Assembly (NCBI GenBank): GCA_003233175.1 | Contig: QIKY01000082.1 | Coordinates: 1-42,686 of the forward strand | DNA: 42,686 nt | DNA from: Planctomycetaceae bacterium | Lineage (GTDB): Bacteria; Planctomycetota; Planctomycetia; Pirellulales; Pirellulaceae | Reading direction: 5' to 3' | Part shown: piece by piece, positions 31,598 through 34,402 of the stretch | How the letters are laid out: every line of letters starts with the position of its first letter | Numbering within the stretch: position 1 is the stretch's first letter | The notes under the pieces: model-generated | Databases searched by the model: none | What the model was told of the DNA's origin: nothing | What the model saw: only the letters and a program-made list of their open reading frames with translations | Made by a program: the position numbers and the translations under genes

Positions 31598-31605
31598 ATT
31601 TCGGC

Positions 31606-32120
31606 AACTAAGTACCTGTCCAAGATCTATTCCGTGCAATGGTGTTCTGGAATTCCCGCCAAGCCGGAGGCTTGCCAGCCATTAGCCGGCGGTCGAGCGC
31701 AGCGGGCCAACGCAACGAACGTGCATCCCGGCGACGATGCCAGATGTAGCGGGCGCGAGAAACGCCTCAAAACAACGCTGTCATTTTCGCCGCCCACCGT
31801 TGGAGTGTACGCTTTATACCTTCTAACACAACTTGGTAGGTCAGCATTAAACTCCGTGTTTGAAACGCCAAACAGGGGTTATGTTAGGAGCTTTTAGCGT
31901 GTTTTGTTCTCGGACGCACGCTGAATCGCGAACTCCAACGGCGGCTGGCATCCCGCCGGGATGCGGAATGTCGGCGGCTCGTTATCCGGTGGTGTTCGCT
32001 GCGCTCGACCAACCGGCTAATGGCTTTTATCCTTTCAGGATATGAAATCAAGTAGCCTGCGCTCTTCGGCTTTGCCGGCATCTGAAAAACACGGAATAAT
32101 ATTTGGACAGGTGCTAAGTT
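31606..32120. mobile_element. MITE-like element with 31-bp terminal inverted repeats
   Basis: Left end 31606-31636 and right end 32090-32120 are inverted copies (common core ACCTGTCCAA and ATTCCGTG, about six mismatches in 31). Inside is a second inverted pair, 31677-31704 and 31997-32025 (core TAGCCGG...GTCGAGCGCAGCG), and a piece of repeat family C at 31918-31943. No transposase or other plausible frame occurs within 515 bp. It looks like a non-autonomous element or nested repeat insertion. The right end overlaps the stop of the ExbB-like gene. Confidence 0.65.
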
Positions 32121-32419
32121 CCTCGCAGATCCTTCGTTCCCTTCTGCCGTTTTTCAGCGGCGGCGGCTTTGATAAGGAGCCCTATTCCGAGCACCGCGAA
32201 CACGGCGGCGAAGGACAGCCCAATCATTGTCGCCAGCAGCGAAGTCGAGATTCCATTTGCGAGAACGCTGGGCTTGGGCGTCTGCCCTGAAGCCGCGATT
32301 TGGTCAAAAGCGCGAATCATTCCCCAAACCGTACCCGCCAAACCGACCAAAGGCGCGAGCACCGCCAAAAGGAGAAACGCGTTCCCAAATTTTCTCAGCG
32401 TCTGGTGGGATGATATCAT
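32114..32419 (-). CDS. Small MotA/TolQ/ExbB proton-channel-like protein
   Basis: 101 residues with two hydrophobic helices (about 14-34 and 59-84). The phrases GLAGTVWGMIRAF and LANGISTSLLATMIGLSF match the conserved pore part of the ExbB/TolQ/MotA family, whose members are usually about 200 residues with three or more helices. Either this is a naturally short planctomycete form or the remains of a longer gene. Its last codons and the TAG stop lie inside the terminal repeat of the MITE-like element, so the C terminus may have been changed. No ExbD/TolR partner is adjacent. Confidence 0.7.
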   Translation of the reverse strand: MISSHQTLRKFGNAFLLLAVLAPLVGLAGTVWGMIRAFDQIAASGQTPKPSVLANGISTSLLATMIGLSFAAVFAVLGIGLLIKAAAAEKRQKGTKDLRGT

Positions 32420-32479: not shown

Positions 32480-33085
32480 TCAGGCTTTCTTAAGTTTTTT
32501 GAGCAGTTTTTCTACGCCGGGCGCAACGCTGCGAACTTTGTTTGGATCAATGCTTCCAAGAATTCCAAAGGAGTGTTTTCCCTTGCCGTATTCGCCTTTC
32601 GGCTGCGCATTGCGAGTTGCCATCTTCAAGGAATCGAAAACTTGTTTTTTTGAAATTGTTTCGACTTTGGTTGTTTTTGGCAGCGATTTTTCGCGGAACC
32701 CCTGCCCGAAATAGTCCTTCAGGCAACCTGGATCGGCCAGAAACCAAGATTCCATACATTCCATCATCAGGTAGACATCGTCGTCCGTTGCGCCGTTTGG
32801 CTTTTGCCATTTATCGCGAGCGAGCAAGTGCGCCCAAGGCTCGTCAGGCGTCTTCGTTACCGGAGCTTCACTGTCGACCAGCAACAGCGGCAATTGGTTT
32901 TCTTTCGGGCGTTTTAACGCCGTACAAAAACTGTCATAGGCATCATTTCGCGAACCACAGGCCACGATTGCGGGCATGCGGCCAGCCAAGCCGGCCTTCT
33001 CAAAAAACTTGCTAAACCCTTGGCGGCATTCTATCTTGAGTTTGTGGCCGTTCCCGCCGCCTTCCACATAGATTTTGATACTCAC
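32480..33085 (-). CDS. TOPRIM-like DUF4276 family protein, partner of the ATPase
   Basis: 201 residues from the GTG at 33085, which overlaps the ATPase stop (GTGA), so translation is coupled. The N terminus, SIKIYVEGGGNGHKLK, and the later LPLLLVDSEAPV match the Glu and Asp-x-Glu positions of TOPRIM-fold nucleases such as OLD; MECMESWFLADPGCLKDYF is a further DUF4276-like phrase. The tail ends in a basic run (KLLKKLKKA). Together with the upstream ATPase it has the layout of split OLD-like pairs known from phage-defence modules. An upstream start at 33148 would add 21 residues without family character. Confidence 0.78.
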   Translation of the reverse strand: MSIKIYVEGGGNGHKLKIECRQGFSKFFEKAGLAGRMPAIVACGSRNDAYDSFCTALKRPKENQLPLLLVDSEAPVTKTPDEPWAHLLARDKWQKPNGATDDDVYLMMECMESWFLADPGCLKDYFGQGFREKSLPKTTKVETISKKQVFDSLKMATRNAQPKGEYGKGKHSFGILGSIDPNKVRSVAPGVEKLLKKLKKA

Positions 33086-34402
33086 CAGCGGTTTCCCCCG
33101 ATCTCGCCGCGACGCCACAACTGCCCCAAGGAATATTTTTCCAGCCACGCCTTCAGTTCCTCGTTTTCCAGACGGCGCATCTGTGATGCCGAGTCTATTT
33201 TATCGCAGACGATCACATCAGCGGGATCGTCAGACATGCAATCGACCAATACTTCGGAATGGGTCGTGACGATCAACTGCGTTCTTTTCGAGGCTTCCTT
33301 GAGCAACTTGCCGACGCTCACCAACACATCGGGGTGCAGCCCCAGTTCCGGCTCCTCTATACAGATCAGCGGCGGCGGTTTGGGGTGGCACAGTATTGCC
33401 AGCAGGCACAGATACCGCAATGTTCCGTCCGACAACCGCGTGGCGGGGATGTTGAATTTCCCTTCTTGGAGAAAAACCTGAACCGTTCCGCCTTGGATAA
33501 TGACATCGAAGTCTTCCACTTCGGGATAAAGATTCTTGAGGTTTTCGAGAATCGCGTTCTTGGCGTCGAAATCTTGGCGTATGGTGTTCAGCACCAACCC
33601 CAAATTCGAGCAATCTTCTGCGAGAAAGTCGTTTCGCTGGTCTGCTCTTTGCGGTTGGCGCGTCGGCGAATTTCGGCCAAACGACCACTCGCGGAAAATA
33701 CGAATGCGACTGTATTCCTCGCCAAGGTAGGTGATTTCAGGATACTGGTCTGGGTCTTTGCGTTGGGCCAGAATCGATTTTTGCCGGTCAAAATCTTCTC
33801 GATAGAGCTTTCGAGGTTCGTCTTCCCCAGCAACGTTGAGTATTGGATTGCCTTCGGGCAGGGAGAAAAAGTGGATGTCGTTGGTCGTTGAGGCCACCAA
33901 GAGGACCTAAAGGAGAGTCTTCAAGATTTTGCTCGCTCACCATTTCACCCCCGATTTCAAACCGCTGCGACGATTCGGTAAACACAATTGCGTGGCGAAG
34001 CATCTTTTGGTCCGTCGTGCGCGGATTGTCGACCAATACTCCAATCGCCGCCGTTGGTTGTTCCCCCTCTCTCCAGTGGTAATCGCTGATTTCGCCGTCA
34101 TCGTCGATGATGCCCACTGTGTCTCCGAGGAGAGCGGCTTCAGATGGAGTCAACGCTTCGGCCAGAGGCGTGTTTCGTTTCTCTCCTTTCCAGAGCCAAT
34201 CGCTGATCCCGCCGCCATCGCGGATATTTTCCGCCATGTCGCCGGGTGCGGATTGAAGTAAAGACAACGCTTCAATCAGATTCGATTTTCCCGAACCGTT
34301 GGGCCCAATCAAGACATTCAGCGGCCGCAGCGGTAAATCAATTCCGTCCCCGTCAAACGACAGCAGGTTTTTCAGAGCGATGCGATGAATGAGTTGCGGC
34401 AC
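33082..34402 (-). pseudogene. AAA/ABC-type ATPase of OLD-like pair, broken by a +1 frameshift
   Basis: Two frames together make one ATPase. The first (34402 to 33788) starts MPQLIHRIALKNLLSF and has Walker A GPNGSGKSNLIEAL. The second (to 33082) has the signature-like PATRLSDGTLRYLCLLA, Walker B LICIEEPELGLHPDVL and the switch histidine in VTTHSE. The first frame should pass to the second between 33909, where the second has a TAG, and about 33890, where the family phrase resumes (NDIHFFSLPEGN). One extra base is enough. No long homopolymer lies there. Assembly error, recent inactivation and programmed frameshifting remain possible; every key motif is otherwise intact. Confidence 0.8.

What the first reader, a model, noticed from the sequence alone, without database searches (positions are those of the whole stretch)
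32480..34402. OLD-like ATPase/TOPRIM pair with a single +1 frameshift in the ATPase
The ATPase has intact Walker A, signature, Walker B and switch His in two overlapping frames, and the DUF4276-like partner with VEGGG and VDSEAP motifs is intact and translationally coupled (GTGA). Split ATPase/TOPRIM pairs such as PARIS are phage-defence modules; this pair could be a related system. The break falls within about 20 bp, bounded by a TAG in the second frame, without a homopolymer, so inactivation, assembly error and programmed shifting must be separated.
Basis: partly seen in the sequence, partly recalled or inferred. Interest (0 to 1): 0.58.

Follow-up and report, generated by a model that had tools for sequence, protein, structure and literature searches.

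The report
Broken copy of HEC-01 defence pair
A planctomycete genome carries a two-gene module of a known candidate anti-phage type (an ATPase sensor plus a nuclease), but its ATPase gene is split by one frame break not seen in the relatives examined, so this copy is probably dead or misassembled.

Summary
On the minus strand an ABC-type ATPase (34402-33082) is read in two overlapping frames. A DUF4276 gene (33085-32480) follows with a GTGA overlap. Both match PADLOC's candidate system HEC-01 (HEC-01A 7e-128, HEC-01B 2e-81), so this is a member of an already named candidate kind. AlphaFold of the DUF4276 protein (pLDDT 96.5) gives an OLD/AriB-type TOPRIM nuclease (OLD Z 9.8, AriB Z 8.8), with conserved E8, D71xE73, E112 and K168. 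Some relatives sit next to or inside BREX and type I RM loci, which supports a defence role. The frame break is private: 81 of 81 relatives carry the ATPase in one frame. No slip site or RNA structure was found there, so programmed shifting is not supported. Neither gene has decayed at conserved positions, so the break is very recent or an assembly error; raw reads are needed to decide. Ordinary overall: a new, probably inactive, member of a known candidate kind.

The parts
33788..34402 (-). ATPase, first frame: GTG start, Walker A GPNGSGKSN; homology to relatives ends near 33910, then out-of-frame tail to the stop at 33788
34060..34290 (-). Diverged in-frame tandem duplication, copies about 117 bp apart (39 codons), in a surface loop after the WKG motif
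   Evidence: (47/68 ungapped, 0 of 2000 shuffles); loop position from the model of relative L134
33880..33909 (-). Frame-break zone between the two ATPase frames; TAG 33909-33907 bounds the second frame; falls in a variable loop between two strands of the fold
33082..33906 (-). ATPase, second frame: signature LSDGT, Walker B ICIEEPELGLHP, switch His TTHS
32480..33085 (-). DUF4276 protein, OLD/AriB-type TOPRIM nuclease (HEC-01B), 201 aa; E8, D71, E73, E112, K168 present

Best explanation
A member of the PADLOC candidate system HEC-01 in a Planctomycetota genome, whose ATPase gene is interrupted by a single, private, non-programmed frame break. In intact relatives an SMC/Rad50-like (OLD-type) ABC ATPase would act as sensor and holder of a TOPRIM two-metal nuclease encoded by the overlapping downstream gene; a phage trigger would release or activate the nuclease, which cuts nucleic acid and stops the infection, as AriA/AriB do in PARIS. 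Shown here: family, gene order and overlap, TOPRIM fold model, catalytic constellation, defence neighbours of some relatives, uniqueness of the break. Inferred: defence function, nuclease activity, substrate (tRNA or DNA), trigger. In this copy the P-loop half and the signature/Walker B half are in different frames, so no complete ATP site is made, and translation of the first frame stops about 700 nt before the nuclease start, which should uncouple and silence the nuclease. The break is either a very recent mutation or an assembly error.
For: HEC-01A and HEC-01B models match both genes at 7e-128 and 2e-81, and 63 of 63 aligned partners match HEC-01B. 81 of 81 relatives have P-loop and C-terminal half in one frame (in L072 a stop falls two codons before the end). 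The partner was found directly downstream in 66 of 81 by motif and in 11 of the other 15 by HMM (L099 only in part). The fold of the partner is closest to OLD TOPRIM domains and AriB. The ATPase profile A3 hits SMC, retron PtuA, AriA and OLD chains, and the model of an intact relative has the SMC/Rad50/PtuA head fold. Neighbours of relatives: BrxC model PDLC02482 in 10 of 72 upstream proteins, PglXI model PDLC02541 in 4 of 74 downstream; brxA-brxB-brxC-[pair]-pglX in L055 and brxC-[pair]-pglXI in L134. No decay: the partner deviates at 0 of 47 conserved columns; the ATPase halves at 3 of 32 and by 2 substitutions in the C half, inside the 0-14 range of relatives.
Against: No activity of HEC-01 is documented in the papers I could search. 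The window itself shows no other defence gene among the 10 other proteins scanned with PADLOC; the pair lies between FliM, an ExbB-like fragment, a repeat element and acetolactate synthase. A functional origin of the break cannot be excluded from one sequence. Most relatives' nearest neighbours did not hit a listed defence family at 1e-30.
Confidence: 0.8

Rival explanations
1. Assembly or sequencing error: the real gene is continuous and the pair is an intact HEC-01 copy.
For: No decay at conserved positions of either gene; a single clean break; the genome is a 440-contig draft.
Against: No homopolymer at the break; the large neighbouring ORFs of the window are unbroken, so errors are not pervasive. 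Breaks also occur in relatives' nuclease genes, so real inactivation of such pairs is plausible.
Confidence: 0.4
2. Recent true inactivation: a real frame mutation has silenced the module.
For: Broken partner genes are seen in 3 of the 10 closest phylum relatives while the ATPase is readable (L026, L028, L052). The neighbourhood carries a repeat element and an ExbB fragment.
Against: No second lesion in either gene, so it would have to be very young; the relatives' breaks could themselves be sequence errors.
Confidence: 0.5
3. Programmed +1 frameshifting makes the full ATPase from the two frames and tunes the amount of ATPase and nuclease.
For: Both frames conserve their share of the protein; the partner overlaps the end of the second frame.
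Against: 0 of 81 relatives have a break; no stop codon in the first frame at the break and no recognised +1 slip motif (inspection, motifs recalled); the RNA after the break folds no better than shuffles (z 0.35, 128 of 200 at least as good).
Confidence: 0.03
4. The pair is not defence but a housekeeping or DNA-repair ATPase/nuclease (compare Cran1, an OLD protein with a cell-cycle role, PMC12796447, passages read).
For: The window copy is not in a defence island.
Against: Some relatives lie within BREX and beside RM genes, they are scattered across many phyla and archaea, and no match at E 1e-25 was found in 364 of 392 genomes of the phylum, as expected for a mobile accessory module.
Confidence: 0.1

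Closest known systems
HEC-01 (PADLOC-DB 2.0.0 candidate; 'Hma-embedded candidate', from the Payne et al. preprint cited in PMC12988326; preprint itself not seen)
   Same: Both proteins match its two models strongly; same gene order and overlap as its relatives
   Different: ATPase frame is broken; 39-codon duplication; no other defence gene found beside it
PARIS (AriA/AriB; class 4 OLD)
   Same: Separate ABC ATPase and TOPRIM nuclease genes; partner fold close to AriB (Z 8.8)
   Different: Partner is DUF4276, about 200 aa, and matches no AriB model; ATPase matches HEC-01A far better than AriA
OLD nucleases class 1 and 2 (BpOLD, TsOLD, GajA)
   Same: TOPRIM domain with the E / DxD / E / K constellation (PMC6755086 passages) and an ABC ATPase
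   Different: ATPase and TOPRIM are two genes here; second D of DxD is E
Septu / retron PtuA
   Same: Same ATPase head fold and weak profile similarity
   Different: Partner there is PtuB or a retron, not a TOPRIM (recalled)

Membership tests
HEC-01 | ATPase matches the HEC-01A model | tested here: met
   PDLC04177, 2.8e-41 and 7.4e-128 for the two frames
HEC-01 | Adjacent DUF4276 partner matches the HEC-01B model | tested here: met
   PDLC04201, 2e-81 and 1.5e-81
HEC-01 | Anti-phage activity | not testable with these tools
   no experimental report on HEC-01 found; this copy is broken
PARIS | Partner is AriB (DUF4435-type, label recalled) | tested here: not met
   only DUF4276 and HEC-01B models match
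PARIS | Partner has an OLD-type TOPRIM nuclease fold | tested here: met
   8ux9_A Z 8.8, rmsd 4.4 over 164; 8v46_D Z 7.9, rmsd 4.0 over 166
OLD nuclease, classes 1-3 | ATPase and TOPRIM in one polypeptide | tested here: not met
   two overlapping genes in window and relatives
OLD-type TOPRIM nuclease | Catalytic Glu, DxD, second metal-site Glu, Lys | tested here: met
   E8, D71, E73, E112, K168 invariant in 63 of 63; matched to BpOLD E400, D455, D457, E508, K562 by order and spacing, not by superposed coordinates; second D is E here; position 12 (taken as the E404 site) is N here, D in 49 of 63
Programmed frameshift gene | Break conserved in relatives | tested here: not met
   0 of 81
Programmed frameshift gene | Stimulatory RNA structure | tested here: not met
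   z 0.35

The most novel reading that the evidence does not exclude
The frame change is a regulated or reversible off-switch: ribosomes shift at the loop to make full ATPase only at a low or induced rate, which also sets how much of the coupled TOPRIM nuclease is made.
Probability: 0.03. Interest if true: 0.65.

Novelty: new member of a known kind. Interest (0 to 1): 0.25.

Why it matters
It adds a fold-based reading of DUF4276 as an OLD/AriB-type TOPRIM nuclease. That makes HEC-01 a second split OLD-type pair beside PARIS, and its placement inside BREX operons in some genomes suggests a backup effector like the one argued for PARIS-type modules (PMC12839542, passages read). The window copy itself teaches little beyond showing that such pairs break.

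Tried and rejected
Rejected: programmed frameshift. Rejected: membership in PARIS. Rejected: defence island around the window copy (no tRNA). Led nowhere: PDB sequence search with the partner profile (one chance hit at 0.58); the standard repeat finders, which missed the diverged duplication; papers naming DUF4276 (none). AriA was not among the 50 rows shown, which is inconclusive. Not resolved: whether the break is real, as no reads are available. An estimate of the frame-error rate of the whole draft genome was not made.

Rows dropped. A2 holds the window and 62 of the 66 motif-found partners: L078 and L100 were dropped as broken or divergent, L056 and L088 as near-duplicates. A3 holds 36 of 81 ATPases. 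Neighbour scans used 72 of 73 upstream and 74 of 74 downstream proteins that passed a script, from 81 loci; four neighbour ORFs were skipped for stops or unknown residues. My ORF calls for neighbours are simple longest-ORF choices, not a gene finder.

Full report
Observation. The minus strand of 34402-32480 holds an ATPase read in two overlapping frames followed by a DUF4276 gene. Frame A carries Walker A; frame B, one nucleotide on, carries the signature, Walker B and switch histidine. Pfam gives AAA_21 to both halves (4.5e-10 and 3.7e-24) and DUF4276 to the partner (5.9e-18). The likely partner start is GTG 33085, inside the ATPase stop (GTGA).

Identity. PADLOC names the pair: HEC-01A and HEC-01B. 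The window is contig 21 of a 440-contig draft of about 6.0 Mb. The own genome has further HEC-01A-like ATPases on contigs 91, 67 and 100, but only one partner of this subfamily.

Relatives. In 392 genomes of the phylum, 28 have a relative at E 1e-25 or better, the own genome included; the closest is 64% identical. A scan of the GTDB genome contigs kept 80 loci at 57-64% identity by its listing, from many phyla and from methanogenic archaea; one viral-contig locus adds an 81st (L134). No closer copy was found, so the age of the break cannot be set from a sister sequence. In 81 of 81 the P-loop and the rest of the ATPase are in one frame (with ten variant P-loops read by eye). The window's break is therefore private.

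The break. It lies between the TAG at 33909 and about 33880, in a loop that varies in relatives and falls between two strands of the predicted fold of relative L134. There is no stop in frame A there, no +1 slip motif that I recognise, and no unusual RNA structure. Conserved columns are kept on both sides: 3 of 32 deviate in the first half, 2 substitutions in the second half once the misaligned first residues are set aside, and 0 of 47 in the partner; intact ATPase relatives range from 0 to 14 of about 138. The sequence thus shows no decay besides the break. A young mutation or an assembly error fits; I cannot decide between them. Broken partner genes with readable ATPase occur in three of the ten closest phylum relatives (L026, L028, L052); in a fourth, L031, no partner was found.

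The duplication. The first half is about 40 residues longer than in most relatives because of a tandem duplication with 117-bp offset, 47 of 68 ungapped identities in its best part. It is diverged and in frame, so the gene was probably read through it for a long time before the break (inference). It sits in a loop after the WKG motif.

The partner. AlphaFold with 63 sequences gives pLDDT 96.5. The best solved matches are OLD TOPRIM regions (Z 9.8, rmsd 4.0 over 165), AriB of PARIS (8.8), TsOLD (8.2) and GajA (7.5); Foldseek's first four rows are OLD TOPRIMs at E 4e-3 to 5e-2. E8, D71, E73, E112 and K168 are invariant in 63 of 63 and match in order and rough spacing the BpOLD two-metal residues E400, D455, D457, E508 and K562 (PMC6755086, passages). 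The position taken for E404 is N here and D in 49 of 63; N also occurs in two other members, so this is no clear defect.

The ATPase. The profile of 36 intact relatives finds SMC heads, retron PtuA, AriA (1.2e-8) and OLD, and the model of L134 (pLDDT 90.4) has the SMC/Rad50/PtuA head fold (Z up to 21.9).

Context. Upstream neighbours of relatives include BrxC (one model in 10 of 72) and type I specificity subunits (3 of 72); downstream neighbours include PglXI (4 of 74) and single BrxL, BrxH and HEC-06 matches. L055 reads brxA, brxB, brxC, the pair, pglX; L134 reads brxC, the pair, pglXI. A 2026 study describes OLD-ABC/TOPRIM modules recruited to BREX loci as backup effectors (PMC12839542, passages), and a 2026 survey says that several Hma-embedded candidates have shown antiviral activity, naming HEC-06 (PMC12988326, passages). 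The only defence paper I found naming HEC-01 lists it in Desulfovibrio piger genomes (PMC12724379, passage). The window copy has no such neighbours: around it lie FliM, an ExbB-like fragment, acetolactate synthase and a repeat element.

Mechanism. By analogy with PARIS (PMC12409363, passages) the ATPase holds and, on a phage trigger, releases the TOPRIM nuclease. Trigger, substrate and activity are inferred. In this copy neither a complete ATP site nor coupled translation of the nuclease is expected.

Verdict. A new, probably inactive or misassembled, member of a known candidate kind. Interest low to moderate.

Noticed in passing
window 31605-32125: MITE-like element with inverted ends (acctgtccaa...attccgtg) and a central block of about 77 bp that recurs separately in both orientations; 155 matches in the own genome, many at 80-90% identity.
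   Followed up: partly
window 32114-32419 (-): ExbB/TolQ-like ORF that matches only the second half of the family (PF01618 39-117 of 127; ExbB residues 165-247 of 281), directly after the partner gene; possibly a remnant.
   Followed up: partly
L026 = L078, L028, L052: Relatives whose nuclease gene is broken (frame change, in-frame stop, or loss of homology after about residue 87) while the ATPase is readable.
   Followed up: partly
L055 and L134: HEC-01 pair embedded inside BREX operons between brxC and pglX.
   Followed up: yes
G000 contigs 91, 67, 100: Further HEC-01A-like ATPases in the same genome; only one partner of this DUF4276 subfamily was found genome-wide, the window's.
   Followed up: partly
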